DNA of 64,000 nucleotides from Lachnospiraceae bacterium (GTDB taxonomy: Bacteria > Bacillota > Clostridia > Lachnospirales > Lachnospiraceae): positions 1 to 64,000 of the forward strand of contig JAGBEO010000036.1 in NCBI GenBank assembly GCA_017936885.1, read 5' to 3'. Each line of letters starts with the position of its first letter. Within the stretch, counting starts at the first letter, position 1. Both the position numbers and the translations under genes were made by a program. This document shows positions 14,882 through 51,231 of this stretch, piece by piece. The notes under the pieces are model-generated. The model made no database searches. It was not told where the DNA came from and saw only the letters and a list, made by a program, of their open reading frames with translations.

Positions 14882-15445
14882 ATGGATTATATCAATATAC
14901 AGGGGGATGAAAATACAATCATCCGAGAATTATCAAATTATATGAATCAGGGAGGAGCCAAGCTAATTGTACAAAATCTGTCCTCATTTATGGATGTTTT
15001 GGGTGATGATGAGGCATTCGATATTAAGGAAGAAATACAGAAACAAGAAGATGGACTTGGATTTATAGTTCCCAGAACAAATTATTATCTCAATGTAAAA
15101 AAGACAACCATAGCGTTTATTGGACTTTTGTTCGATATTCAGTTCACGAAGGGCTTTGCTTCTTTTGTCTTAGATATTTTGGGAATCACTGCTGACAAGA
15201 TTAGAAAACTGACAGACATAGAAAAATGTGTCCTGCTCTTGATCAGAACTGGTTCTATTACCATAAGTAGCGGTGGGTATGTGTTTGGCAGTACTCCAAA
15301 CTGTATGAATTTTGCTTTGGGATGTACCTACTGCCAATATGACAGATGCCATCTCCCCCAAGAGGTATTGAATGATACGGTTCAAAAACTATTGGAGGAT
15401 AAAGTAATCAGGTGTAAAGATAATTCGCTTGTATGCTGCTTTTAG
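14882..15445 (+). CDS. Unknown protein with C-terminal Cys/His cluster
   Basis: A 187-residue protein I do not recognise. The middle (about residues 75-105) is hydrophobic enough to be a buried helix or single membrane segment. The region NCMNFALGCTYCQYDRCH contains four Cys and a His, which could bind a metal, and the protein ends LVCCF. The ribosome site is poor. It ends 21 bases before a peptidase gene on the same strand; the spacing suggests a two-gene unit, perhaps a substrate or partner of that peptidase (inference). Confidence 0.6.
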   Translation: MDYINIQGDENTIIRELSNYMNQGGAKLIVQNLSSFMDVLGDDEAFDIKEEIQKQEDGLGFIVPRTNYYLNVKKTTIAFIGLLFDIQFTKGFASFVLDILGITADKIRKLTDIEKCVLLLIRTGSITISSGGYVFGSTPNCMNFALGCTYCQYDRCHLPQEVLNDTVQKLLEDKVIRCKDNSLVCCF

Positions 15446-15466
15446 CATGGCATGGAGGAACAAGAT

Positions 15467-16594
15467 ATGGGAAAGAACAGTTCGGAGAAAGAAAAAATAC
15501 TGCGGAGTTTTTTCGGGGAGCATGAATCAAGCCCGCTTGTTTTAGAACCTGATAAGTTTTTTTTATTGAAGAAGAATGGCATTTTGGATGCAGACGTCAT
15601 GTTACAGCTTCAGTCAGAAGTAGAATCCATGATCGGGGATGGATGTTTTGCGTTGATTGATAGGGAGGAGGTAAACGCTTTTGCCATGGAAAAAGACGGA
15701 ATACCCGTAATTGCTCTATATGCCGGTGCGGTCAAAAAGATACTTTGCGCTGCCAGCGTTTTGATGCTGAGTGATGCTTTTCTGCCGGAAGTAGGGGATA
15801 TGGCAGCCTGTTACCATGATATTTCATCTGATATGTGTACTCTGAAAACAAATGATGAGAAAGACTCTGTACTAAAAATGACAGTTTCAGGAGATCCTTG
15901 CAGGGAAAATTTGGGGTATATGATTGCCTGTTTAGCAATCCACTTTGTTGTTTACCATGAGGTAGGTCATCATGAGAATGGGCATGTGAAAAAGCTGAAA
16001 GAGAAATACAATCTCTATTATAGCGAAACTCCCTATACGTGGATTTCTGACGAATATCTTGAGGAAAGGAAGCGGATGGAACTGGAGGCGGACATGTATG
16101 CTGTTGATATGCTTATTGAGAAAATAGACAGCCTGATGGAATCTTGGAGTAAATATCTGGATATGGATATCACTTATTCGGAGATGTTCCAGCTCATTGT
16201 GCCGGCTCTCGTCATTGTAAAAGAGAGCCTGCCTACAGAGGTATCGCGTGTAGAAGAAATTGAGAAAAGCTATTATCTGCCTAATATTATCAGAATCAGC
16301 ATTATTGTCATGGTAATCGCAAGTCAGCCCCATATTAAAAATGTTGTGTATCCTGATATTTTGGAATTATTTACAGAAAATGAGGAATTCAGGGTGCAGT
16401 TTGAGGAATTATATGGAATCAAGGTTTTTGATGATAATTCTCAACTGACTAAGGAAGCGTATGAAAAATACTATTCTTTAATGATTGCAGATACAGAGCA
16501 ATTATATGCAGATATTTTTGTAGGAAATCATTTAAGAACGACTTTTTTATCGGATGTAAAAGCGATGAATTGGTTTTTATACCAATACAAGTAG
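15467..16594 (+). CDS. HExxH zinc metallopeptidase-like protein
   Basis: A 375-residue protein. The zincin motif HEVGH is at residues 164-168, followed by a further HH-rich stretch, and a glutamate-bearing ELEADMYAVD segment at about 205-214 supplies the likely third ligand, as in gluzincins of the M48/ImmA-like type. There is no signal peptide or clear membrane span, so it is probably cytosolic. Start 15467 is chosen because GGAGG (15454-15458) is 8 bases upstream. It pairs with the unknown gene upstream. Specific protease family and target are unknown. Confidence 0.72.
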   Translation: MGKNSSEKEKILRSFFGEHESSPLVLEPDKFFLLKKNGILDADVMLQLQSEVESMIGDGCFALIDREEVNAFAMEKDGIPVIALYAGAVKKILCAASVLMLSDAFLPEVGDMAACYHDISSDMCTLKTNDEKDSVLKMTVSGDPCRENLGYMIACLAIHFVVYHEVGHHENGHVKKLKEKYNLYYSETPYTWISDEYLEERKRMELEADMYAVDMLIEKIDSLMESWSKYLDMDITYSEMFQLIVPALVIVKESLPTEVSRVEEIEKSYYLPNIIRISIIVMVIASQPHIKNVVYPDILELFTENEEFRVQFEELYGIKVFDDNSQLTKEAYEKYYSLMIADTEQLYADIFVGNHLRTTFLSDVKAMNWFLYQYK

Positions 16595-16834
16595 ATTCAA
16601 GCCGGTGCCATAAAGGAGCAAATTGTTTCTTTTGGCTATACCGAAAAAGAATTTGTGGAAGCAGAAGGTGCTTTTAGTGTAAATGAAAATGAGAAGTGTT
16701 GCAGATTTCAACAGGGTCACCGGACTGGCAAAGACCAGATAAGAAATCGGCAACTGTTACACCATGAAAGGCGATATGGTTTTAATCTGTATCGTCTTTT
16801 CTGTTTTTTAAAAGGAGCGTCTGTATATGAGTAA
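16595..16834 (+). other. In-frame open extension after the peptidase stop; likely gene remnant
   Basis: Directly after the TAG at 16592-16594 the same frame stays open for 79 codons to TAA at 16832-16834. Its first part reads protein-like (IKEQIVSFGYTEKEFVEAEG), but there is no start codon with a ribosome site. An imperfect hairpin (GGCGATA, about 16770, with TATCGTC) and T-rich run at about 16770-16808 looks like a terminator. I interpret this as decayed coding DNA; stop read-through is a remote alternative. Confidence 0.35.
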
Positions 16835-17039
16835 AAATAACATCGTAGAAAGCATTGTAGAGTATATAGAAAACCATTTGAACGAAGAATTGTCCATGGA
16901 CAGCATTGCAAAAGAGTTAAACTACTCCAAATACTATATTGCAAGAACTTTTGCAGAAAAAACAGGCTGTATCTTTGTACACCGCAAACCTATAGAAAGA
17001 ACGGCGTATTTTATCCGAAACAAAACAGGATCAGTATGA
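16827..17039 (+). pseudogene. AraC-family regulator fragment
   Basis: An ORF of 70 codons with AAAAGGAG upstream. Its first 50 residues form the first helix-turn-helix of an AraC/XylS domain (IEYIENHLNEELSMDSIA-type helix, then LNYSKYYIARTFAEKTG). After this the sequence turns into unrelated residues and stops. A normal AraC DNA-binding domain needs about 100 residues with two helix-turn-helix units, so only half remains. It lies next to a ClpP fragment in a decayed stretch. Confidence 0.75.
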
Positions 17040-17097
17040 AAAGTGCCGTCTGTCATTTTTCCTGTACAAATTACGGAATGGGAGGCAGAATGGCAGC

Positions 17098-17321
17098 ATG
17101 AGTACAATTCCTTATGTGATCGAGCAGACAAGCAGGGGAGAAAGAAGCTGCGACATTTTTTCCAGGTTATTATCGGACAGGATTGTATTCTGGCTGAAAA
17201 TACGGGAAAGACGGTGGAACAGATTGCGGTGGATACGGAAAGGGATCACTATATGTCCGCAGAAGAAGCCCTGCGATATGGGTTGATCGACAGCATTATT
17301 CAGAAACGGATGGCAGGTTAA
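17098..17321 (+). pseudogene. clpP: clpP fragment with internal deletion and frameshift
   Basis: ATG at 17098 starts [14 protein letters not shown] and [13 protein letters not shown], essentially the N-terminus of ClpP protease. At about position 17190 the sequence jumps, in a different frame, to [20 protein letters not shown] and [16 protein letters not shown], the ClpP C-terminus. About 120 central residues, including the catalytic Ser and His region, are missing. The retained ends imply a deletion joining two short repeats rather than slow decay. A functional clpP must exist elsewhere in the genome. Confidence 0.85.
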
Positions 17322-17345: not shown

Positions 17346-17375
17346 TGAAACTTTTTTTGGCTTTGACTCGTATTA
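17346..17375 (+). promoter_or_regulatory. ECF-sigma-type promoter before the 354-residue paralogue
   Basis: TGAAAC (17346-17351), a 17-base spacer beginning with a T tract, and CGTATTA (17369-17375). This matches the general ECF sigma pattern (TGAAAC ... CGTA) rather than the vegetative one, and recurs with the same geometry at 18606-18635. The gene start is 63 bases downstream. Confidence 0.7.
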
Positions 17376-17437
17376 CTATTAGGAGACTGACAGAGGAAAC
17401 GCCATAAGAGAATGATGCATAGTCAGGAGAAATAAAA

Positions 17438-18502
17438 ATGAGTATCAGTGGAGTAGGAAATACGAATTCTTATTTTTATGAAAACATGAATAGAAGCAAT
17501 AACCGGAAGAAAGGGACTGCTTTATTTGACCGTGCTGGAATTGCAACTGCTTCAAATTCGCGCGGAGTATCAGAACAAAGGAGCAGATTTTCAGCAAATG
17601 ATGCGTATAACAGCATGACGATGAATGGAGAGTTCAGGAGTGAGATCGGAGAACATTATCTACAGAGTCTCAATGGCAGAAATGCTAATCTTTTGGTTCA
17701 ATCAAAGGGTGAGGTTCAAAAAGTAGACAACGAAAGATATTTGATAGATGTTTCAGATGAGATAGCAGGTTATTGGCGTATATATGATAAGGAAAGCAAG
17801 CACTCATTTACATTTGATCCCTTTAGCACCAGTATTCAGACTGATGAAAATACGGGGAAAGATTATATCGTTTCCTGTGATCCATGGGGACAACTGATGG
17901 ATGTAATGTATGCTGATGATGCGTTAATAGAAGGAATAAAAACATTTATTCACACAGATGATATTACAAAGTCAGTTTTGAACGATAAATATTCCATTGA
18001 AGTTCACGCATACACAGGTATAGAGTGTCTGAAAGTGAAAGGACAGGAAGGAAACGGCTCATGGCTTATGATGAGCGGTGATCAACAGCAGCTTGATAAA
18101 TTGCAGGAGCTAGCGGATCTGTATAAAGAGAAATATCCTAACTTAGTGAACGATGATGGCCTTGCATTGAAGTTTTATGCTGAGGGTGAGGCTGCAGGTC
18201 ATATTGTAAGAACCGGGAACGGCATTATGTTTATTGCCTGCAACGGAATCTCATACATGGATAATAATGACCCGTCAAAGTGCTGGGGCTTTCTATTTTC
18301 TGAAAATGATACAGATATTTATAACGAGATTATGCAAGCAATCATAGAAGGCAGCATAAAAGGTGGTATTGAATCTGTTTCCGGCTGGGAGGAGTGGTTT
18401 CAGGAAAAAGGGCATATTTATGAAAGAATTTTTTCAGATGAAGAATTGGCTCTCATTGCAAATGGGAAAGAAGTTAACAGTAACAATTTAATATCAAAAT
18501 AG
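17438..18502 (+). CDS. Unknown protein, M-I-S-G-V-G family
   Basis: A 354-residue protein beginning MSISGVGNTNSYFYENMN, an N-terminus shared with the proteins at 22824 and 23435. It has no signal peptide; residues 1-70 are polar and Asn/Ser-rich (probably disordered), followed by a mixed alpha/beta region with repeated acidic and aromatic residues (CDPWGQLMDVMYADD; GWEEWFQEKG). No catalytic motif is recognised. AGGAG lies about 10 bases before ATG. It has its own ECF-type promoter and terminator, so it is a separate transcript beside the two-component operon. Export by a non-Sec route is a speculation. Confidence 0.75.
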   Translation: MSISGVGNTNSYFYENMNRSNNRKKGTALFDRAGIATASNSRGVSEQRSRFSANDAYNSMTMNGEFRSEIGEHYLQSLNGRNANLLVQSKGEVQKVDNERYLIDVSDEIAGYWRIYDKESKHSFTFDPFSTSIQTDENTGKDYIVSCDPWGQLMDVMYADDALIEGIKTFIHTDDITKSVLNDKYSIEVHAYTGIECLKVKGQEGNGSWLMMSGDQQQLDKLQELADLYKEKYPNLVNDDGLALKFYAEGEAAGHIVRTGNGIMFIACNGISYMDNNDPSKCWGFLFSENDTDIYNEIMQAIIEGSIKGGIESVSGWEEWFQEKGHIYERIFSDEELALIANGKEVNSNNLISK

Positions 18503-18512
18503 CAGCGTAAAG

Positions 18513-18551
18513 GCGCATGGAACAGTAAATTGTAAACCATGCGCTTTTTTT
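18513..18551 (+). terminator. Strong terminator
   Basis: GCGCATGG (18513-18520) pairs with CCATGCGC (18537-18544), followed by seven T residues. It separates the 354-residue gene from the two-component operon. Confidence 0.9.
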
Positions 18552-18605
18552 GCGTTCAAAAGGAGGAACATGTGCGAGAACATTTAAGCCACTACCACAG
18601 GACAG

Positions 18606-18635
18606 TGAAACTTTTCCCCCTTTTTATTCGTGTTA
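18606..18635 (+). promoter_or_regulatory. ECF-sigma-type promoter before the LytTR operon
   Basis: TGAAAC (18606-18611), 17-base spacer and CGTGTTA (18629-18635). The AGTGAAACTTTT block and the spacing are the same as at 17346-17375, one base differing in the -10. It lies about 205 bases upstream of the response-regulator start; the intervening 18636-18840 holds no gene that I see. Confidence 0.68.
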
Positions 18636-18840
18636 TTTATGTAAGAAAATCCCCGCAGTAAGCAGCAAGAAGCAAACAATAAGGCACTGGCAGATTTAGA
18701 GACATTTCAAAAAGGGTTCGTTACATTTCGCAGAAAAATGAAAAATATCTGTCGATATACAAAATGAGAACTTCTGAAAACTTTGCAAAGAAAGAGAAAT
18801 GTAAAAGATTGCTATAAAAGCAGAAGAAGGAGAGAAACGT

Positions 18841-19575
18841 TTGAACATTGCAATCGTCGATGATGAAAAGATCATCAGAGAACAGATAAAAGGTCTGATC
18901 CAAAAACGTGTGACAGATAATGGCATGTGTTGTCCGGGTATCTGTGAACCGGACGCCTATGAAACGGGTGAAGAACTGCTTGCCGCCGGAAAGCGTTTTG
19001 ACATCATTTTCCTTGACATACAGATGAAGGGCAAGGATGGAATCGAAACGGCAAGAGAACTGCGAAAGCGCAAGGAAGATGCGGTACTGATCTTTGTTAC
19101 CGGTATCAGGGAATACGTTTTTGAAGCCTTTGACGTGGCAGCTTTCCATTACCTGTTAAAGCCCATAGAAGAAGAGAAATTCGCGGAAGTATTCGACCGC
19201 GCGGTAAAAGAAGTCATGAAGCGGAAGGAGCAGGGGCGGGAGCAGCTTTTTATTAAGACGAGGAACCGGAATATTACCCTTGATAAGAAGGACATTTTAT
19301 ATGTGGAAAACAGGGGAAGAAAAGTAGAGATCCATACCACAGGGGAAGTGATAGAGGTCTATGCTGTCATGAAAGAGTTAGAGGAACAGTTGGGCGGCAA
19401 TTTCTATCGCTGTCACAGGGGCTATCTTGTGAATATGGCATATATCGCAGAATACAGTAGCGCCAGTATCAGACTGGGTAATGGAGAAAACATCTATCTG
19501 GCGAAAGAAAGGTACCATGAATTTGTCAAAACCTATATGCGGTATCTGCGGAACGGAGGTACAGCCTGTGTTTAA
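18841..19575 (+). CDS. LytTR response regulator (AgrA-like)
   Basis: A 244-residue protein starting with TTG at 18841 (GAAGGAG upstream). Receiver domain residues 1-125: acidic IVDDE at the N-terminus, phospho-acceptor D59 in IFLDIQMKG, conserved Thr in FVTG and Lys in LLKPIE. The LytTR DNA-binding domain spans about 137-240 (FIKTRNRNITLDKKDILYVE and the final beta strands). It overlaps the sensor kinase by 8 bases, so the two are a coupled pair of the Agr/Com quorum-sensing style. Likely targets are the neighbouring paralogue genes. Confidence 0.94.
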   Translation: MNIAIVDDEKIIREQIKGLIQKRVTDNGMCCPGICEPDAYETGEELLAAGKRFDIIFLDIQMKGKDGIETARELRKRKEDAVLIFVTGIREYVFEAFDVAAFHYLLKPIEEEKFAEVFDRAVKEVMKRKEQGREQLFIKTRNRNITLDKKDILYVENRGRKVEIHTTGEVIEVYAVMKELEEQLGGNFYRCHRGYLVNMAYIAEYSSASIRLGNGENIYLAKERYHEFVKTYMRYLRNGGTACV

Positions 19576-21040
19576 CATAATCAGTGGAATTTTCGAGGCA
19601 GCAGTTGCACTGTTGGAAGGATATTGTCTGCAATATTTTTTGGGTAGTTTTCTGGAAAAACGGCTGATAAAAGGCAGACGGAGCGGATGGTTGGCAGCGG
19701 TTTTGTATGGCGGAGGGAAATGGGGGCTGAAATTGATCCTGCCTTCTGAAAATGAAAGTATGCGGATTCTTGCAAAGCAGGCATTGATCTGCCTGATTTT
19801 GTTTGGGTTGACTATGTGCTTTTATAAAGCGGTTCACATGATTACGGTTTTTCTGGTAGTTACCTTTATGGCAGTAAGCGAAATCAGCTTCTTTCTGGCA
19901 TATATGATTCTGCAAATAGGAAGTCACCTGTTTGCATTATGGGTGATTGGTTTTGAAAAAGGATATATTACTTCTTTGGATGCTTTTATCAACATTTTGG
20001 AGGTGACAGGGAATGGTTTATTGATTCTCATGTCCGCAGTATTTATAGCAATATTTTATGTTTCCTTACGAAAGATCGTGCAGGATTATCGGGAAAAGGA
20101 TTATGCCATCCGGAGAACGGAACTATTATTTATTCTTACGCCGGGCATGGTGGGCTTACTGATCTGTATTTTGCTGCGCATCATTATGATCACGGTGGAA
20201 AATGAAGTGCCGAAACTTCTGTATGATAAATACCCGCTGCTGGCATGGATCGTTCCGGCGATTTTGCTTTTATCGCTGTTATCCATCTTATATGGAATCA
20301 AGCTGTTTCAGGATATGATCCGTCTGAACAGGGAAAAGAGCAGCAGGATCATTTTGGAAAAGCAGATCGGCAGTATGCAGGAACATATGCGGGAGATGGA
20401 GCACGTTTATTCCGGCATACGGAGTATGAAGCATGATATGAAAAATACTTTTGCGGTCGTCATGCAGCTTGCTATGGGAAACAGCGAAAAAGAAAAGGAG
20501 GATCTGCAAACATATCTGTCTGAGATGAACCGGACGTTTGACAGACTGGACTTTCAGTTTCAGACGGGCAATGCGGTGGTGGATACGCTGCTTAATATGA
20601 AATACCATGAAGCGGTGCGCACCCTTCCCGACTTACAAATGGACGCGGACAGATTACTGTTTCCGGAAACTTTACTGATCCAAAGCTACGACATGGGAAT
20701 TATTTTGGGGAATGCACTGGACAATGCGATTGAGGCGTGCGGGAAGCTGAAAGAAAAGGAACCGGAGGCGGAAATTTTTATCAGGCTTTCTTCTTATCAG
20801 AGAGGAAAGATGTTTTTTATCGAAGTGGAAAACAGCTTCGACGGCAATGTGATACGGAAAGTCCATAAGGAATTTCCGGCAACCGATAAGGCAGACAAGG
20901 AAGCCCACGGAATCGGGCTTTCCAATATCAGACATGCGGCGGAGAAATATCATGGTGCGGTAGATTGGGCGGTGAACAATAAAGTCTTTATACTGTCCGT
21001 TATGATGCAGAATGAAAGGGGTGCTGAAAATGATTTTTAA
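19568..21040 (+). CDS. GHKL sensor histidine kinase (AgrC-like)
   Basis: A 490-residue kinase. GTG at 19568 is chosen because GGAGG (19557-19561 region) is upstream and the hydrophobic N-terminus begins there. Residues 1-250 hold about six membrane segments, as in AgrC-type peptide sensors; the phospho-acceptor His is H289 in RSMKHDMKN. The ATPase has NALDNAIEAC (N box) and HGIGLSNIR (G box). There is no AgrB or propeptide gene nearby, so its ligand is unknown; small ORFs for a pheromone were not found. It overlaps the next gene by 11 bases. Confidence 0.93.
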   Translation: MFNIISGIFEAAVALLEGYCLQYFLGSFLEKRLIKGRRSGWLAAVLYGGGKWGLKLILPSENESMRILAKQALICLILFGLTMCFYKAVHMITVFLVVTFMAVSEISFFLAYMILQIGSHLFALWVIGFEKGYITSLDAFINILEVTGNGLLILMSAVFIAIFYVSLRKIVQDYREKDYAIRRTELLFILTPGMVGLLICILLRIIMITVENEVPKLLYDKYPLLAWIVPAILLLSLLSILYGIKLFQDMIRLNREKSSRIILEKQIGSMQEHMREMEHVYSGIRSMKHDMKNTFAVVMQLAMGNSEKEKEDLQTYLSEMNRTFDRLDFQFQTGNAVVDTLLNMKYHEAVRTLPDLQMDADRLLFPETLLIQSYDMGIILGNALDNAIEACGKLKEKEPEAEIFIRLSSYQRGKMFFIEVENSFDGNVIRKVHKEFPATDKADKEAHGIGLSNIRHAAEKYHGAVDWAVNNKVFILSVMMQNERGAENDF

Positions 21041-21956
21041 CGGTTTAGAAAATGCTTACAGGAATGAATATTGGGGGAAGGAATATCCGTTTGCAGGCAG
21101 GACGCAGAAATCCAATGCAGGCAGCACCGGTTCGGCGGAGCGCACGCAGGATGCAGCAGGCAGCACAACGTTTATCACACAACTACAAAACAAGGCGGAA
21201 ACGAGTGAAAAGCAGACAGGCATATGTGCGGGATATATTGCAAGCATCAGTCGGGCGTACAGTACGGGGAAACCGAATGCAACGAATTTTGCGGATGCTT
21301 TCCCGATGTATGATGTGGTTACCCATGTGGGAAATACGGATGTCTCTTCGGCGAACTGGCAGAGGAATGATTTTCCGTTCTGGAAATATTTTGATAAAAA
21401 TGCGTCCGCGGACTGTCTGAACAACTGGCAGCCCAAAGGTCCCAATCCGCCGCTGACAGATGCCAATATTCAACGGAATCTTGGATCTATCGGCATAGGA
21501 AAAATGGCTATCTTGATACCCGAAGAACTTCAGGCGAAGATGGATGCTGATGAGGCGTACGCCAGAGAGATCATGGCAAAAGTGCAGAAGTGGAAAGAGG
21601 ATTATGACCGGAGGGACAATGCGCTGGCAGCTTCCTATGGATATGATGTAGCAGAGTATCAGGTAGGAAAGAACTATTGTCTGCAACTGGATGAGAATGG
21701 GGATGTGGTGAACGCCACCGTTTCCGGAAGCGGTGGAAGGATCACCCAGAGCAGCGATGAGATGGTGAAAGCATATTATGCCCGCAAGAAAAAACAGGCG
21801 GAATATAAACGGATCGCGCAGGAAAATGCCGTAAGGAAAGAACTTCAGGAAGAGGTGGCTGCCAGAAGATATGCGCAAAGCAACCTGGCGAAAGAAGCGG
21901 CATTAGAGGCATATCAGTCGAGTTTTCTAATGGGAGGATTGCGCAATGAATTTTAA
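21030..21956 (+). CDS. Unknown protein of the paralogue family, co-translated with kinase
   Basis: A 308-residue protein. Start 21030 is taken because AAAGGGG lies 7 bases upstream; it overlaps the kinase stop. The N-terminal 100 residues are low-complexity, Ser/Thr/Gly-rich. The core carries the family motif MAILIPEELQAKMDAD, followed by a Lys/Glu-rich helix, a short strand (YCLQLDENGDVVN), and an Arg/Lys/Glu/Gln-rich coiled-coil tail. The same order of elements is found in the proteins at 21946 and at 39250-39996. No signal peptide. Function unknown; genetic coupling with a two-component system suggests a regulated or secreted product. Confidence 0.75.
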   Translation: MIFNGLENAYRNEYWGKEYPFAGRTQKSNAGSTGSAERTQDAAGSTTFITQLQNKAETSEKQTGICAGYIASISRAYSTGKPNATNFADAFPMYDVVTHVGNTDVSSANWQRNDFPFWKYFDKNASADCLNNWQPKGPNPPLTDANIQRNLGSIGIGKMAILIPEELQAKMDADEAYAREIMAKVQKWKEDYDRRDNALAASYGYDVAEYQVGKNYCLQLDENGDVVNATVSGSGGRITQSSDEMVKAYYARKKKQAEYKRIAQENAVRKELQEEVAARRYAQSNLAKEAALEAYQSSFLMGGLRNEF

Positions 21957-22683
21957 TAGTGTTGGAACTGTTTTAAACAATACATATCAGTATGCAAACA
22001 GAACACAGAAGACTATTGCAAGCAGTACAAGTTTCACAGAAAGCTTGCAGGGAGCAACGGAAATGGGTGCAGCAAGAGTAGAAGAGTATACGGAGTATCT
22101 TAGGGGTAAGTATGGAAATGTTACTATTCAAAGTGTTGGAAAAGACCAAGCCAGTCTTGAACGAGTAGGCAAGAGTATGAGTGGAAATGATGTTATTATT
22201 GCTCCCAACATTTTAGAACAAATGGCAAATGATCCGGAGAAAGCAGCCTATTATGAAGCAAAGATTCAGAATTATTTTGATTCGGTGCCAAGATACCAGG
22301 CAGAACTTTCCGCCATGGGTCATGAAATCCATTCCAGCGGTATCGTGATCCATCCGGACGGCACGGTCACTCACTACATTAGCGGAGACTTAAAGCCGGA
22401 GGTCAGGGCGAAGATCGAAGCGAGAATCAAAGCGGAACAGGAAGCAAAGCGGAAACGAAGAGAAATGTATCAGGAACTCAGTCAGGAAGCGGCAGATAGG
22501 AGAAGGGAGTTTATGGAAATGCAGTTTCATAAGCAGGCTATGCAGGTAGCATTAGATGACCGGATATTGGATACCGAAACCAATTATTGCCTTGTGGATC
22601 AATCACAGGCGGCTGCATCTGCTGTTTCAATTTATGAAAATGTAATCAATACACTCAGCAACAGTGTGATCAAAAATATTTGA
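21946..22683 (+). CDS. Unknown protein of the paralogue family
   Basis: A 245-residue protein starting inside the previous gene (overlap 11 bases, GGGAGG upstream). The core reads KYGNVTIQSVGKD and then VIIAPNILEQMANDPEKA, nearly the same as KQYGNMDF and VLIDPEELERMAEDEE in the minus-strand protein at 39250-39996. A GIVIHPDGTVTHY strand follows, then a basic coiled coil (EARIKAEQEAKRKRRE). It is the third gene of the LytTR operon. Function unknown; shared architecture implies a real protein family and not chance ORFs. Confidence 0.78.
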   Translation: MNFNSVGTVLNNTYQYANRTQKTIASSTSFTESLQGATEMGAARVEEYTEYLRGKYGNVTIQSVGKDQASLERVGKSMSGNDVIIAPNILEQMANDPEKAAYYEAKIQNYFDSVPRYQAELSAMGHEIHSSGIVIHPDGTVTHYISGDLKPEVRAKIEARIKAEQEAKRKRREMYQELSQEAADRRREFMEMQFHKQAMQVALDDRILDTETNYCLVDQSQAAASAVSIYENVINTLSNSVIKNI

Positions 22684-22714
22684 TATGTTGGACTCATAGT
22701 GAGAGAGCATATCG

Positions 22715-22726
22715 TGCCATATGGCA
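22715..22726. promoter_or_regulatory. Perfect palindrome upstream of the next paralogue
   Basis: TGCCATATGGCA is a 12-base perfect palindrome in the 140-base gap between paralogue genes (22684-22823). It might be a regulator-binding site. I do not see other copies at the ECF-type promoters, and no clear -35/-10 pair accompanies it. Confidence 0.3.
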
Positions 22727-22823
22727 TAGGGCGGTTCTGACTGTCTTAAGGAATTGTAGGAGTACAGACAATAAGAGAAATTGCAAAAGATAGGATAATA
22801 TAATAATTTTGGAGGAACACAAA

Positions 22824-23405
22824 ATGGCTATTAGCGGAATTGGCACAACAGGCTATACAGTAGGGTATGAAACAAGAAGAACGGAAAGAAACATGACTTC
22901 AAATAATTTTGCAAAACAGGCGACGGAAGCGGCACAGGCAGCAGGACAGGCGACAGCCGTCCTGCATGGCGCTGATGAAGGGTCAGGGGATATTACGATA
23001 TTCTCAGGGGCGGAGCTTGTCAGCGGATCATCCGTTTCCGTTTATAAGACAAAGGATTTTGATCCGGAGAACCCTGTATATAAAGTAAAGATATGGGATA
23101 AGTCGGGAAATGTAACAGAACGGATGGTGGATGTGTCAAAGGTGGACCCGAAAAACTGTGATACGGCTGAAATGTATGCGTACACTGCCAATCTGAAAGA
23201 AAGAGGAAAAGGCAGTTTTGAGGACACAGTGCTGAAAGCCGTAGTTGCAAAATCCGTGAAAGATGCTGAGAGCAGCTCCGGTGCATGGAGTTTTTCGGAC
23301 AAGGTGGATTGGGTAAAAATCGTCAATGATATTATGCAGTCTGAGTACCGTTACGGAGATTTAAAGGGCTATTTGGAATGGAAGAAGTTTTTAAGCTTTT
23401 TGTAG
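22824..23405 (+). CDS. Unknown protein, M-I-S-G-I-G family
   Basis: A 193-residue protein beginning MAISGIGTTGYTVGYE. ATG 22824 lies 8 bases after GGAGG; an earlier TTG would lie before the ribosome site. The first 80 residues are Ala/Thr/Ser-rich; the middle is a beta-rich stretch (VYKVKIWDKSGNVTERMVDV), then helices with a Trp/Lys-rich end. The N-terminal motif is shared with 17438 and 23435. No signal peptide or membrane span is seen. Confidence 0.75.
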   Translation: MAISGIGTTGYTVGYETRRTERNMTSNNFAKQATEAAQAAGQATAVLHGADEGSGDITIFSGAELVSGSSVSVYKTKDFDPENPVYKVKIWDKSGNVTERMVDVSKVDPKNCDTAEMYAYTANLKERGKGSFEDTVLKAVVAKSVKDAESSSGAWSFSDKVDWVKIVNDIMQSEYRYGDLKGYLEWKKFLSFL

Positions 23406-23434
23406 AAGACAGAAAACAGATGGAGGATTGAAAC

Positions 23435-23878
23435 ATGAGTATTAGTGGAATCGGGTCAACGGGTTATTTAACCGGAATCACAGGCAGAAGAAATGGCGTG
23501 TCAGCCGCCAGTCAGATAAATCAATCATCAGGGAGCTTCGCACAGACAATACAGAATGCGCTGACCCAGTGGCGGATACCGGAAAGCAATTCGGTCAGCA
23601 GTTTAACCAATAGTTTATTTACCAATTCATTCAGCAATTCGCTGACTAATTCGGTCAGTTCGTGGTATCGCCCTTCTTATGTGGCGGTTCCGATCGTCAT
23701 TACTGAGGAAGCATATGAGAAGATGCAGGAGGAACCTCAGCTTGCTGCCAATACCATGCAATCATGGTGGAATAACAGCTATGCGAACATGACAGCATTT
23801 CCATTGTTGGGAATGAATCCGTCTGTGGCATCTGCTTATCAGCAGATATTAAACGGTTTTACCGGTAGTATTATGTAA
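23435..23878 (+). CDS. Unknown protein, M-I-S-G-I-G family (short)
   Basis: A 147-residue protein beginning MSISGIGSTGYLTGITGRRN, with GGAGG 7 bases upstream. The middle has a run of Asn/Ser/Leu repeats (LTNSLFTNSFSNSLTNS). The C-terminal half carries VPIVITEEAYEKMQEEP, a version of the core motif seen in 21030 and 21946. It lies 29 bases after the preceding paralogue, so the two are co-transcribed. Function unknown. Confidence 0.75.
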   Translation: MSISGIGSTGYLTGITGRRNGVSAASQINQSSGSFAQTIQNALTQWRIPESNSVSSLTNSLFTNSFSNSLTNSVSSWYRPSYVAVPIVITEEAYEKMQEEPQLAANTMQSWWNNSYANMTAFPLLGMNPSVASAYQQILNGFTGSIM

Positions 23879-23994
23879 AGGGAAAGAACCGGAAAAACTT
23901 GGACTCACAGCAGGGGGATGATATAATTAGTCTCATAACAAGAGTTTGGTCTATCACTAATAAAGACTCAGAGCAATTATGGGAGAAAATATGT

Positions 23995-24981
23995 ATGAGG
24001 AAATTTACGATTATTCTAATGCTTTCGATGGTAATTTCATTATGCGGATGTGGAAGCACAGACGAATCTGAAACATCACAAATACAGAATGAAAGTATAG
24101 CCGAACCGGAAATGTCCGAAAAGCCACAGGAAACCCAAGCCGGGAACGAACTATCCCAAATGCAGACTGACAATGCCGTCAGTGATGTGGTACAAGGAGG
24201 CCCCTATGGTGAGATTTCTTTTTCCCTGCCTGACGGATGGAGTTATGAATTATGCCCGATCGACAGCGATAGCATAATGTGCGGTATGTATGGCATTCAT
24301 TTTTATCCGGAGAGTGTGACAGAAGGTTATATAGAGCTTGTCTACATGGATTCCTTCGGCGTCTGTGGAACAGGGCTTGAAACAGAAAACGCAATGATTG
24401 CAGGAAATACAGCAGATATCGGAACCTATGACGGTCATACGTACTGGGATTTTATTTCATTCCGGGATGAATATGAGGGAATCGTTGCCTTAACCTATTC
24501 TGTGGATACATGGTGGAGCGAGTACGGCGATCAGGTGATGGATATTTTGAATACGGTGTCATTTAACCCCAATGTGAAAGCGGGCGGTGCATATATTTAC
24601 CACGAGGAATCGGAGAACGATGAAATCGGTCTGTATTTTTCCCTGAAAAATATATCTTCCACAGGGGCAACTATCTGTTTTCGCCTGTATGATCCGGATG
24701 CCCCGACAGGAGAATTGTACTACGGCGATGATTTTGTGTTCGAAGTACAGAAAAATGGCAGATGGGAAGAAATTCCGGTTATTGTAGAAGGAGATTACGC
24801 TTTTCATGATATCGCATATACGATTACTGCCGGGGATGGAATAGAACAGGAAATGGATTGGAAATGGCTGTATGGAGAACTGGCACCGGGTGAGTACCGG
24901 ATCGGGAAGTGTGTCAATGACTTTAGAAAGACAGGAGACTTTGACTCATATATGATGTATGCGCATTTTATCTTGAACTAA
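23995..24981 (+). CDS. Lipoprotein of unknown function
   Basis: A 328-residue protein with a lipoprotein leader: MRKF, hydrophobic stretch, lipobox LCGC with Cys19. A polar Ser/Glu/Gln-rich linker runs to about residue 65, followed by a beta-rich exterior domain with several Trp/Tyr positions and a C-terminal half resembling an immunoglobulin-like or DUF-type fold (LYFSLKNISSTGATICF). Start 23995 has GGGAG nearby; the reading frame is open further up, but the leader fixes the start. It is the last gene before the kinase cluster and follows the paralogue genes by 116 bases. Confidence 0.8.
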   Translation: MRKFTIILMLSMVISLCGCGSTDESETSQIQNESIAEPEMSEKPQETQAGNELSQMQTDNAVSDVVQGGPYGEISFSLPDGWSYELCPIDSDSIMCGMYGIHFYPESVTEGYIELVYMDSFGVCGTGLETENAMIAGNTADIGTYDGHTYWDFISFRDEYEGIVALTYSVDTWWSEYGDQVMDILNTVSFNPNVKAGGAYIYHEESENDEIGLYFSLKNISSTGATICFRLYDPDAPTGELYYGDDFVFEVQKNGRWEEIPVIVEGDYAFHDIAYTITAGDGIEQEMDWKWLYGELAPGEYRIGKCVNDFRKTGDFDSYMMYAHFILN

Positions 24982-39249: not shown

Positions 39250-39996
39250 CTAGATACTGAAATCAAAATGGCCGCCCGGCAGGTTGGTAGTGGTTTCTTC
39301 TTTGATGATGTCCCAGTCAACGCCTGCGATTTTTTCAAGCAGTTCCTCCGTGGAGCTTGCGTAAACCGTGGTGCGTTTGCCCTTCTCCACATTGTACGCA
39401 TCATAGTTCTGGGCGGCGGCTTTCTCTGCATCTGCTGTTTTGGCATCAGCGGCAGCTTCTTTCTTCTCCTCGCGGATTTTATCCACGAATTCCTTCTGAC
39501 GTTCGCTGACTTTCTCTAATTCAGCGAAGAAGGAAACCTCGCCGTCCTTGCCGATGGTAACGCCAAGCTGAACGACCTGATCCCCGTTTTCGGTATCCTT
39601 AAGCTGTTCCTTTAAATCATCCAGCTTGCCGACAGCTTCATCAAGAAGCGCAAGATTCTGGTTCTTAACCTCTTCGTCTTCAGCCATACGCTCTAATTCT
39701 TCCGGATCGATTAAGACACTGTATTCCTTCGTTCCGCGGGACAGATAAGAAGCAGCTTCTTCCTCGGAGTCATAGTCAGCTACGATAAAATCCATGTTGC
39801 CGTACTGTTTCTTTAATTCCTGTAGAAGCGCTTTGGCTTTATCGCTCAGCTTTACACTGCTATGCTCTGTCTTTTTGGTCTCTTCTGTCTTCTTGGAAGC
39901 ATCGGATTTCTGGGTTTTATCCTGTTCCTTTTTATTCTGTACCGTACTGTTGTAATAGTTGCTTTGATACACGCTGTATCCGTTTACTTTGCTCAT
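39250..39996 (-). CDS. Unknown coiled-coil protein, relative of the 21946 paralogue
   Basis: A 248-residue protein starting MSKVNGYSVYQSNYYNS (AGGAGGG 8 bases before the start codon). A Lys/Glu/Thr-rich segment (residues 15-50) leads to LKKQYGNMDF and VLIDPEELERMAEDEE, clearly the same as KYGNVTIQ and VIIAPNILEQMANDPE in the protein at 21946-22683. A GVTIGKDGEVSFF strand and an Ala/Lys/Glu-rich coiled coil follow. It is the only paralogue on the minus strand and the only one outside the 17-25 kb block. Function unknown. Confidence 0.8.
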   Translation of the reverse strand: MSKVNGYSVYQSNYYNSTVQNKKEQDKTQKSDASKKTEETKKTEHSSVKLSDKAKALLQELKKQYGNMDFIVADYDSEEEAASYLSRGTKEYSVLIDPEELERMAEDEEVKNQNLALLDEAVGKLDDLKEQLKDTENGDQVVQLGVTIGKDGEVSFFAELEKVSERQKEFVDKIREEKKEAAADAKTADAEKAAAQNYDAYNVEKGKRTTVYASSTEELLEKIAGVDWDIIKEETTTNLPGGHFDFSI

Positions 39997-48798: not shown

Positions 48799-51231
48799 AT
48801 GATAGAAATGATGATTACTTCAAGCGTACTGATTGCAGTTGTTTTATTGATCCGGCGCCTCGTCGGGAGAAATATCGATATGCGTCTCAGATATGCACTG
48901 TGGCTTCTGGTGGCGGTGCGGCTTGTGCTGCCGGTGAATGTAGGAAACAGTGGGGTCAGTGTGTTGAATTTGCTGCCTCAGACATGGCAGTCATATAATT
49001 ATAATACAGAAGAATTTCCGGCGGACGAAACAGCCGATGCAGAATCAGAATATGCGGAAGTCGGTATGAACGGTACTTTTCTGATAGGACTGGAATCTTT
49101 AGGGGAAAAGAAGGGAAGCCTAGCAGACCCGGAGGCAGCGTTGGTGGCGAATATGGAAGCAGCATTGATACCAGACACAACAACGGACGATTTGACCGGA
49201 GAAACAGAATATAGCGGGAAAGAGAATGCGGACATATTATTGCAGGAACCTGTGTTGGCGGGAGAGAAGGAATCTGTAACTGAGAATGGAACAGTGAATC
49301 CGGCAGAGAATGATCCTGCGGGGAGAAATCCGGTGTGGAGCCTGCTTAACGCCTATCACAGCGAATTGATCGTGACATGGGTTGCAGGGATTCTTCTTGT
49401 GGGCGGTTATATGGCTCTGGCACAGCTTAGGTTTGTGCGGTATCTAAGAAGAAACAGGGAAGCAGTACCGATGCAGCGTATCCCCGGGGAATGGGCTGCC
49501 CGGCTGGCAGAACATAATATGAAAGTGTATCAGGTAAAAGGACTTCCAAGTCCCTGCCTGGTAGGACGGAATATCTATATCAGTCCAAAGATGTGCAGGG
49601 AAACAGACAGGTTGCCGCATATACTGGCGCATGAATACTGTCATGCCAGGCAGCATGATACGCTGTGGGCGTTTCTTAGAAGCGTGCTGACGGCAGTTTA
49701 CTGGTTCCATCCGCTTGTGTGGGTGGCTGCCTATGGTGCGAAGCAGGACAGTGAGCTGGCATGTGATGCGGCGGCGATCCGACTGTTGGGAGAAGCGGAT
49801 CGTTACGAATACGGCAGAACCCTGCTTTATCTGTTAAAGGGCGGTTCCAATAAGGTCGGCTATGCCGGGATGGTACTTACGATGGACGGTAAAGAGAGCG
49901 GCATCCGGGAGCGGGTGTCCATGATCGCGAAGAGCCATGGCAGGAAAAAATGGGCGGCAGCAGTTGTTGGTGTGATCATGTGTGTATCCTGCGGCTGTGC
50001 TTTTACCGGAGCTAAGGATGCAGGGCAGACTGAAGAGAGCCGGGCAGCAAAAGAAGCCGGAGCGGAGATACAGACAGAAGATTTTTCGCCCCAAGAGAAA
50101 GAGATAAAGCTTCTGGCAGAAGAAAATGCAATATTAGAGAAAGAAAATGAACAGCCTGTAGAAGCGCTTGAGGAATCGCAAAAACAGTTTTCAGAGCGGG
50201 AAAAGCAGGCGGAAAGCGAAATGTCGGTATGGGAGCAGAGTCAGACAGAGTTAAAGGCTAAACTGTCTGCCGAGGAACAAAGGCTGGAAGCGTTAAGGAA
50301 AGAAGCCTCGGAAGGCGAAGCATTTCAGAAACTGCTCTATTTAACGGAAGCAGATGTGATCTTGCAGAATAAGGAGATTGACCTACAGGCGTACGGTGAA
50401 TATTATCTGGGTGACACAGAGGAGTGTCCGTTAGAGGACGGTACATGGTATCTCCTTAAGAAAGATGCTTCCGGCATAGTCTTATATGGATTGTATACGG
50501 AAGAATATGGCTGTTATGGTATTGGTATTTTGATCGATGGGGATATGAATTTCTTCATGGAAGAATGGCTGCCGGGCTATATGCCAAGCAGTGTAGAAGT
50601 GTTGGAGTGGACAGAGGACGGACTGCCCGGAACCTTTGCTTTTAAAATGGGGCAGACGAATACCGGAAATTCGGAAATCTGGAAACTGTATGTGGCAGAC
50701 CGATATGATACCGGGCACGTGGAATTATACACCTTTCCGGCAGCAAAGTATCAGAAGCAGTTTGAAGATATGATGGAATTTTCCATTCAGCAGGACAGCG
50801 GTCAGATCATGGTAATCTGTGAGGGCGATATGGTAGTCGGCGAAATGGATGTTTCGGCTTTTGAAGATTATGTGATTGAGGATGTGGTCTGGGAGGGAGA
50901 CCCGTTAGCATTTCAGTTGAATGATGATTTCCCGGTGGGTGTTATTGATGCGCAGTCGGAGGTTCCTGTAAAGAAGGAGAACCCGGAAGAACCGATCATG
51001 ATGGTAACAAGTATCGGATTGAAGCTGCGGGGGATAGATGAGGTGTGGTATTACGGACTGCCGATGCTTGTTTTTCCCATAGACACAGGAGAATGGGGTG
51101 AGCATGAAATGACTTTGGGGACGCCGTCAGTCGGTCATCCGAATTATGTTACAAAACCGCAGACAGCCCTTCCGGATGTGGAAGAGAAGATGGGGAAAAC
51201 GCCGATTCACCTGACAGAGCCGGAAGACTGA
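48799..51231 (+). CDS. BlaR1-like M56 peptidase with non-penicillin-binding sensor
   Basis: An 810-residue membrane protein. Several N-terminal membrane helices (1-50, 190-215) and a cytosolic peptidase with HEYCH (H278-E279-x-x-H282) and ELACDAAAI form the M56 domain. A membrane span near residues 385-405 ends CVSCGCAF, then a Glu/Gln/Lys coiled coil (about 440-515), then a 300-residue exterior domain without SxxK, SxN or KTG motifs of penicillin-binding sensors. Hence it probably senses something other than beta-lactams. ATG 48799 has GGGGAGG upstream; ATG 48769 is an alternative. Confidence 0.85.
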   Translation: MIEMMITSSVLIAVVLLIRRLVGRNIDMRLRYALWLLVAVRLVLPVNVGNSGVSVLNLLPQTWQSYNYNTEEFPADETADAESEYAEVGMNGTFLIGLESLGEKKGSLADPEAALVANMEAALIPDTTTDDLTGETEYSGKENADILLQEPVLAGEKESVTENGTVNPAENDPAGRNPVWSLLNAYHSELIVTWVAGILLVGGYMALAQLRFVRYLRRNREAVPMQRIPGEWAARLAEHNMKVYQVKGLPSPCLVGRNIYISPKMCRETDRLPHILAHEYCHARQHDTLWAFLRSVLTAVYWFHPLVWVAAYGAKQDSELACDAAAIRLLGEADRYEYGRTLLYLLKGGSNKVGYAGMVLTMDGKESGIRERVSMIAKSHGRKKWAAAVVGVIMCVSCGCAFTGAKDAGQTEESRAAKEAGAEIQTEDFSPQEKEIKLLAEENAILEKENEQPVEALEESQKQFSEREKQAESEMSVWEQSQTELKAKLSAEEQRLEALRKEASEGEAFQKLLYLTEADVILQNKEIDLQAYGEYYLGDTEECPLEDGTWYLLKKDASGIVLYGLYTEEYGCYGIGILIDGDMNFFMEEWLPGYMPSSVEVLEWTEDGLPGTFAFKMGQTNTGNSEIWKLYVADRYDTGHVELYTFPAAKYQKQFEDMMEFSIQQDSGQIMVICEGDMVVGEMDVSAFEDYVIEDVVWEGDPLAFQLNDDFPVGVIDAQSEVPVKKENPEEPIMMVTSIGLKLRGIDEVWYYGLPMLVFPIDTGEWGEHEMTLGTPSVGHPNYVTKPQTALPDVEEKMGKTPIHLTEPED

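What the first reader, a model, noticed from the sequence alone, without database searches (positions are those of the whole stretch)
17346..24981. A paralogue family with M-(S/A)-I-S-G-(I/V)-G starts, interleaved with an Agr-like two-component system
Proteins at 17438, 22824 and 23435 share the N-terminal M-I-S-G-I/V-G motif. Proteins at 21030, 21946 and 39250-39996 share a core of the form V-x-I-x-P-x-x-L-x-x-M-x-x-D followed by a strand and a basic coiled coil; 23435 has both motifs, linking the two groups. Two of them are translationally coupled with a LytTR regulator and GHKL kinase. None has a signal peptide or known domain. I infer an undescribed system: cell-density or stress-regulated small soluble proteins, possibly exported or interacting with each other.
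Basis: partly seen in the sequence, partly recalled or inferred. Interest (0 to 1): 0.8.

Follow-up and report, generated by a model that had tools for sequence, protein, structure and literature searches.

The report
Flagellum-linked cluster of putative exported proteins
A bacterium of the family Lachnospiraceae carries a regulated cluster of uncharacterised proteins whose relatives occur almost only in bacteria with flagella and share promoters and start sequences with flagellar parts, so they are probably sent out of the cell through the flagellum's own export machine.

Summary
21030, 21946 and 39250 belong to Pfam DUF6033 (uncharacterised); 23435 carries a remnant of that core; 17438 and 22824 are separate families. 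What they share is the start (M-x-I-x-G), not ancestry. A LytTR regulator recurs in 11 of 20 loci fetched for divergent or tandem DUF6033 copies. The decisive link is to flagella. In 200 Lachnospiraceae genomes all 66 with DUF6033 have the flagellar export gate FlhA, which 111 of 200 have (p=6e-23); in the class 11 of 12 further positives do, the exception lying on a compositionally foreign contig. Stand-alone DUF6033 genes carry sigma-28 promoters (12 of 30 versus 1 of 307 neighbouring genes). 17438 and the regulator share an ECF-type promoter element found four times in the genome, once before flagellar rod genes. Partner genes encode FliD_C and FlxA-like proteins, and a natural fusion puts a 17438-type domain on the tail of a BlaR1-type receptor. 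Best reading: non-structural cargo of the flagellar type III export apparatus under surface-signal control. Export is inferred, not shown; function outside the cell is open.

The parts
17346..17375 (+). ECF-type promoter element TGAAACTTTT-N13-CGTATTA, 92 bp before 17438
17438..18502 (+). 354-aa putative exported protein (17438 family), start M-S-I-S-G-V-G
18606..18635 (+). second copy of the same promoter element, 235 bp before the regulator gene
18841..19575 (+). LytTR response regulator
   Evidence: Pfam LytTR 75.1 and Response_reg 62.6 bits
19481..21040 (+). GHKL sensor kinase (longest frame; from its relatives the true start is likely a GTG near 19559-19568, inferred)
   Evidence: Pfam HATPase_c_5 84 bits; relatives
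21030..21956 (+). DUF6033 protein, overlaps the kinase frame
   Evidence: 27.1 bits
21946..22683 (+). DUF6033 protein, overlaps 21030
   Evidence: 87.2 bits
22824..23405 (+). 193-aa putative exported protein, start M-A-I-S-G-I-G
23435..23878 (+). 147-aa protein, start M-S-I-S-G-I-G and a remnant of the DUF6033 core; longer relatives of about 270-280 aa in L047 and L087
39250..39996 (-). stand-alone type DUF6033 protein
   Evidence: 171.1 bits
40073..40098 (-). sigma-28-like element TAAT-N16-ACGATA (one mismatch), 102 bp before the 39250 gene

Best explanation
The cluster encodes several unrelated proteins (DUF6033, the 17438 family, the 22824 family, 23435) that are most likely non-structural cargo of the flagellar type III export apparatus. 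They have a small non-polar head (M-x-I-x-G), then a Ser/Thr/Asn/Gly-rich stretch and in some cases an F-x-x-x-hydrophobic motif near residues 30-50, the layout of rod/hook-type flagellar substrates. Many stand-alone DUF6033 genes are transcribed with the flagellar regulon by sigma-28. The clusters are instead placed under cell-surface signalling: a LytTR/GHKL pair, an ECF-type promoter shared with flagellar rod genes and, in other loci, BlaI/BlaR1-type pairs, so that cargo is made when the gate exists and a particular signal is sensed. Shown by computation: co-occurrence with FlhA, promoters, shared starts, operon partners, fusion. Inferred: that sigma factors act at these sites, export itself, and action outside the cell.
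For: (1) DUF6033 in 66 of 200 Lachnospiraceae genomes, all 66 with an FlhA match (111 of 200), Fisher p=5.6e-23 (in G144 the FlhA match is partial). Class sample: 12 further DUF6033 genomes, 11 with FlhA; of 66 genomes without DUF6033 25 have FlhA. DUF3879, a partner domain: 14 of 14 with FlhA. 17438 family: 9 of 10. (2) Published sigma-28 consensus upstream of 12 of 30 stand-alone DUF6033 genes versus 1 of 307 other genes of 20 of those loci, p=2.9e-13; a pattern of my own gave 10 of 30 versus 10 of 974, reversed pattern 0 of 30. (3) In a genome of another family DUF6033 and an FlxA-like gene lie within about 3 kb behind a motA-to-cheD type flagellar cluster with flhA. (4) Operon partners include FliD_C (30.5 and 28.0 bits, cut-off 25.4) and FlxA-like (50.5 bits, cut-off 26.3) proteins. 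(5) The element before 17438 and the regulator occurs four times in the genome, reversed pattern none; the other two precede a gene of a second LytTR cluster and an operon of mbl, two FlgE/F/G-type rod genes and a rod-binding gene. (6) Stand-alone DUF6033: 27 of 30 without Cys versus 9 of 122 soluble controls of 200-330 aa. (7) A model trained on 140 rod/hook-type substrates gives AUC 0.905 for 30 DUF6033 and 0.947 for the six window proteins. (8) A BlaR1-type receptor carries a 17438-type domain and DUF3879 behind its last predicted membrane segment.
Against: Export was not observed. With hydrophilic-start controls the model weakens (DUF6033 AUC 0.79-0.82, window six 0.75-0.77; 39996 at the 8th-14th and 21030 at the 43rd-58th percentile). 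89 genes behind LytTR/GHKL pairs taken without selection score AUC 0.751, 16.9% above the 95th control percentile, and the unrelated window gene 14882 scores as high as 39996. F-x-x-x-hydrophobic is found at residues 25-60 in 27% of 44 cluster proteins (15% in shuffles, z 2.5) but in 33% of 425 controls (34% in shuffles), so it is no general marker. None of 47 cluster-type members has the published sigma-28 pattern. In 200 genomes the ECF-type pattern has 10 sites and the reversed pattern 5. Two genomes break the FlhA rule, G510 (DUF6033) and G159 (17438 family); both genes lie on contigs whose composition fits their genome poorly, but misbinning is not proved. Co-occurrence was not corrected for phylogeny beyond about one genome per genus, and no control family was run. 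Four of the six window proteins contain 1-4 Cys.
Confidence: 0.7

Rival explanations
1. Intracellular members of the flagellar regulon: chaperones, regulators or assembly factors that are co-expressed with flagella and bind one another, without leaving the cell.
For: Explains FlhA co-occurrence and sigma-28 promoters; the basic coiled-coil stretch of DUF6033 would fit a binding protein; the start of 39996 is not distinguished from hydrophilic controls.
Against: Unrelated families share the same non-polar start; Cys avoidance; the 17438-type domain and DUF3879 on the tail of a BlaR1-type receptor, outside by known BlaR1 topology (recalled).
Confidence: 0.2
2. Proteins secreted by another route without a signal peptide, for instance a type VII (WXG100) system, that happens to be common in motile species.
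For: The usual secretion route of Gram-positive bacteria for proteins without a signal peptide (recalled).
Against: FlhA in all 66 family genomes and 11 of 12 others; flagellar promoters and partners. Presence of a type VII system was not searched.
Confidence: 0.05
3. No functional link with flagella: lineage co-inheritance or clusters carried by mobile elements, with the shared start a coincidence of annotation or composition.
For: Motile genera may be related; the cluster on contig G510:C11 lies beside what look like mobile-element genes (by eye).
Against: Sigma-28 sites 12 of 30 versus 1 of 307, physical linkage to a flagellar cluster in another family, flagellar domains in the operons and a promoter element shared with rod genes.
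Confidence: 0.05

Closest known systems
Rod/hook-type substrates of the flagellar type III export apparatus (FlgD, FlgE, FliE, FliK)
   Same: Small non-polar residues at the extreme N-terminus, in some proteins an F-x-x-x-hydrophobic motif further on, few Cys, flagellar promoters in relatives. The two export signals, in FlgD residues 2-5 and 36-40 at least 26 residues apart, are described in passages of PMC8983047.
   Different: No structural flagellar domain in the window proteins; several families, multi-copy, with LytTR/GHKL genes; export not shown.
Non-structural proteins secreted through flagella (Campylobacter Cia proteins, FlaC)
   Same: Use of the flagellar gate for other cargo. Seen as search listings with the start of the abstracts only (PMC7910587, PMC2764114, PMC4863622).
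   Different: Gram-negative pathogens. Sequences were not compared here; no LytTR/GHKL clusters are known to me (recalled).
FliK-dependent secretome of Bacillus thuringiensis (PMC12109265, abstract and outline)
   Same: Gram-positive bacterium whose secreted and surface proteins change when a flagellar export regulator is lost.
   Different: A proteomic comparison; the abstract names no protein of the kind found here.
FlgM, the exported anti-sigma-28 factor
   Same: Small protein of the flagellar regulon exported through the gate (recalled); in four genomes the gene behind an ECF sigma gene encodes a protein with a similar start instead of a recognisable membrane anti-sigma factor.
   Different: This genome has a separate FlgM, and no window protein matches FlgM.

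Membership tests
Pfam DUF6033 (PF19498) | score over the gathering cut-off of 25 bits | tested here: met
   21030 27.1, 21946 87.2, 39250 171.1 bits. Not met by 17438, 22824 and 23435; 23435 only by profile comparison, 96%
Flagellar export substrate, rod/hook type | host has the flagellar export gate | tested here: met
   FlhA at G000:C1:149779-151731 within a flagellar operon (gene names by eye)
Flagellar export substrate, rod/hook type | non-polar extreme N-terminus and Ser/Thr/Asn-rich start | tested here: inconclusive
   17438, 21946, 22824 and 23435 at the 96th-100th percentile, 21030 at the 85th, 39996 at the 89th; against hydrophilic controls 21030 and 39996 are not distinguished
Flagellar export substrate, rod/hook type | gate recognition motif F-x-x-x-hydrophobic at least 26 residues behind the head | tested here: inconclusive
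   23435 F35; 21946 F30 and 21030 F48 read; 22824 has FAKQA at F29; none seen at that place in 17438 and 39996; not enriched over controls
Flagellar export substrate, rod/hook type | secretion lost without flhA or fliP | not testable with these tools
   needs an experiment
Flagellar sigma-28 regulon | TAAA-N16-17-MCGATA promoter | tested here: inconclusive
   12 of 30 stand-alone DUF6033 relatives; own 39250 gene with one mismatch; none before the window cluster genes
Agr quorum-sensing system | LytTR regulator with GHKL kinase | tested here: met
Agr quorum-sensing system | AgrA equivalog score | tested here: not met
   52.6 bits against a cut-off of 400
Agr quorum-sensing system | agrB and agrD genes in the locus | tested here: inconclusive
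   none recognised by eye among ORFs of at least 60 aa; no profile search for AgrB or AgrD
FlgM anti-sigma factor | FlgM domain (PF04316) | tested here: not met
   no FlgM hit up to E=1 in the window proteins; the genome's FlgM is at C15

The most novel reading that the evidence does not exclude
A flagellum-based secretion and signalling network in Lachnospiraceae: exported cargo proteins share domains with the outer part of a BlaR1-type receptor and are encoded beside LytTR/GHKL, BlaI/BlaR1-type and ECF sigma genes, so that passage through the flagellar gate feeds back on transcription. In the ECF operons (promoter element, sigma gene, M-x-I-x-G protein) the exported protein would take the place of a membrane anti-sigma factor, a second invention of the FlgM principle.
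Probability: 0.2. Interest if true: 0.9.

Novelty: new variant of a known kind. Interest (0 to 1): 0.75.

Why it matters
A third of the sampled Lachnospiraceae genomes (66 of 200) carry DUF6033, and the family is common in the gut (recalled). If their flagella also release a regulated set of non-structural proteins, that is a secretion route of commensal Gram-positive bacteria that annotation misses, because the cargo bears only DUF names or none. It would give a testable role to DUF6033, DUF3879 and several unnamed families, and a reason for some of the LytTR/GHKL pairs of motile commensals.

Tried and rejected
One paralogue family: rejected by profile comparison. Agr autoinducer system: AgrA cut-off not reached and no agrB/agrD-like gene recognised by eye. 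LytTR direct-repeat boxes: before the regulator and 22824 only imperfect pairs, of a kind also found at three unrelated places; none before 17438. Sigma-28 sites in the window cluster: none. Phage origin: PHROGs gave only weak hits, best E 0.002. Solved structures: nothing below E 0.3 for DUF6033 or the 17438 family. Structure prediction: two jobs accepted but not finished, so no fold was seen or compared. Papers (held open-access library only): DUF6033 0; DUF3879, DUF6033 or FlxA-like 0; FlxA with flagell and Lachnospiraceae 0; Roseburia with LytTR and flagell 1, on polysaccharide use (listing); ECF sigma factor with flagellar type III, anti-sigma and Firmicutes 0; Lachnospiraceae with flagellar type III and secreted effector 1, on Campylobacter FlaC (listing). 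Three broader searches found 51, 62 and 47 papers, of which 10 each were listed; none of the listed titles concerns these proteins. PMC3720852 and PMC8983047 were seen as passages.
Full report
What is there. The window lies in a 3.57 Mb genome, taken as Lachnospiraceae because the nearest named relatives of 17438 are from Lachnospiraceae MAGs. The ORFs exist as stated. Pfam gives LytTR and Response_reg for 18841, GHKL for the kinase, and DUF6033 for 21030, 21946 and the distant 39250 gene; 17438 has no match up to E=1, 22824 none, and 23435 only sub-threshold ones. Profile comparison links the 23435 group to the DUF6033 core (96%) but separates 17438 from 22824 (4.1%) and DUF6033 from 17438 (0.7%). 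So the M-x-I-S-G start is shared by unrelated proteins, as a targeting signal would be.

It recurs. I fetched 20 loci (18 genomes) mostly for divergent or tandem DUF6033 copies; two of them, L061 and L063, carry a strongly matching copy. 11 of the 20 hold a LytTR-type regulator (phmmer E<1e-20), against 1 of 20 loci around strongly matching stand-alone DUF6033 genes and 0 of 33 other stretches, which are 19 flagellar regions and 14 contig stretches of two genomes, not a random sample. L044 (G184) and L087 (contig G510:C11) resemble the whole window cluster. In this genome two other LytTR/GHKL pairs (L066, L069) are followed by several genes of this kind, and L068 and L071 by one to three candidates. 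A start M.[IV].G[IVLMF] is found in 14 of 107 genes behind such pairs and 5 of 425 other genes, the five being relatives of 17438 or DUF6033-like.

The flagellar link. DUF6033 occurs in 66 and FlhA in 111 of the same 200 Lachnospiraceae genomes; all 66 have an FlhA match, p=5.6e-23. Of 391 genomes of the class 18 have DUF6033; 12 were new, 7 Lachnospiraceae and 5 of other families. 11 of the 12 have FlhA, as do 25 of 66 genomes without DUF6033 put through the same search. DUF3879: 14 of 14 genomes have FlhA (against 19). 17438 family: 9 of 10 (against 19). The exceptions: G510, rated 100% complete and without FlhA, carries the cluster on a contig whose three tested stretches have 43-50% G+C and tetranucleotides closer to the window's genome (r 0.87-0.90) than to its own (0.71-0.78); 11 other contigs have 49-64%. 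G159 carries a 17438-type gene on a 4.7 kb contig of 37.5% G+C against 41-44% on three longer contigs. A foreign or misbinned contig is likely, not proved.

Promoters. Upstream of 30 stand-alone DUF6033 genes (the strongest matches) the sigma-28 consensus published for a relative (TAAA N16-17 MCGATA; passages of PMC3720852) occurs 12 times, upstream of 307 other genes in 20 of these loci once, p=2.9e-13. A pattern of my own gave 10 of 30 versus 10 of 974. The window's 39250 gene has the published pattern with one mismatch. Of 47 cluster-type members none has it, although my own pattern did find single sites before cluster genes or regulators in L047, L048, L055, L056 and L068. 17438 and the regulator instead share TGAAACTTTT-N13-CGTNTTA, which resembles an ECF sigma promoter (GAAAC and CGT; recalled). 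The genome has four such sites and none of the reversed pattern: two here, one 240 bp before a gene of the second cluster (L066), and one 212 bp before mbl, two FlgE/F/G-type rod genes and a rod-binding gene, directly behind an ECF sigma gene and its neighbour. The pattern was drawn from the two window sites, so only the other two are independent. Over 200 genomes, with spacers of 12-14, there are ten sites in six genomes against five of the reversed pattern. Outside this genome there are six: four lie 49-113 bp before related ECF sigma genes that are followed by proteins with similar starts (G001, G037, G060, G157; in G001 a 17438-family gene comes next), one precedes a 285-aa gene (G060), and one (G133, no FlhA, spacer 14) looks like chance.

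Neighbours and fusion. Members stand in operons with FliD_C (L013, L055) and FlxA-like (L071) genes (in a further FliD_C-like case, L166, the score was below the cut-off, and the L163 protein with a start like that of the L013 one gave no FliD_C hit). In G462, of another family, DUF6033 and an FlxA-like gene follow a flagellar cluster with flhA. In G193 a BlaI gene precedes a protein made of Peptidase_M56 (13-308), a membrane segment (316-344), a 17438-type domain (359-550) and DUF3879 (550-718), followed by genes of this kind. That this tail lies outside rests on the known topology of BlaR1 (recalled). M56 proteins also lie beside members in L046, L057, L060 and L191.

Export signals. A logistic model on the first 40 residues, trained on 140 rod/hook-type substrates (seven families of 20, named by similarity to this genome's flagellar operon, names by eye), separates left-out families with AUC 0.79-0.97. 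It gives 0.905 for 30 DUF6033 and 0.947 for the window six; the regulator and kinase fall at the 9th and 39th percentile, but the unrelated gene 14882 reaches the 89th. With hydrophilic-start controls only (73 of 265) the values fall to 0.79-0.82 and 0.75-0.77, and 39996 and 21030 are not distinguished. The F-x-x-x-hydrophobic motif is present in three of the six at a suitable place but is no commoner in cluster proteins than in controls. 27 of 30 stand-alone DUF6033 proteins lack Cys, against 9 of 122 controls; six of seven rod/hook families here are mostly Cys-free.

Reading. The simplest account is a set of non-structural cargo proteins for the flagellar export gate, expressed with the flagellum or at the command of surface-sensing systems. 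The step from regulon and start sequence to actual export is inference. I give 0.7 to this, 0.2 to flagellar-regulon proteins that stay inside, and 0.05 each to another secretion route and to no link. It works like flagellar secretion of non-flagellar proteins; membership as proven substrates could not be tested here.

Noticed in passing
L194:3701-6288: BlaI gene and a 741-aa Peptidase_M56 (BlaR1-type) protein whose tail is a 17438-type domain plus DUF3879; M56 proteins also lie beside members in L046, L057, L060 and L191.
   Followed up: partly
L188:3448-5535, L189:3135-5145, L191:5270-6671, L193:3112-4081: ECF sigma genes behind the promoter element, followed by a protein with an M-x-I-x-G-like start and no obvious membrane anti-sigma gene (by eye).
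   Followed up: partly
L084, L085, L059: DUF6033-like genes beside short Cys-rich peptides and what look like subtilase and ABC transporter genes, as in modified-peptide clusters (by eye).
   Followed up: no
window 16827-17321: A piece with a sub-threshold AraC-type HTH match and the C-terminal 40 positions of a ClpP-type protease lie just before 17438, apparently gene remnants.
   Followed up: no
window 14882-16594: 187-aa protein without a Pfam match whose start scores at the 89th percentile of the export model, next to a 380-aa protein with an HExxH-like motif.
   Followed up: no
window 48805-51228: Peptidase_M56 (BlaR1-type) protein with a long tail.
   Followed up: no
L070:7739-13714: In the same genome a LytTR/GHKL pair with what look like an AgrB-like gene, a radical-SAM gene and three short Cys-rich peptides (by eye).
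   Followed up: no
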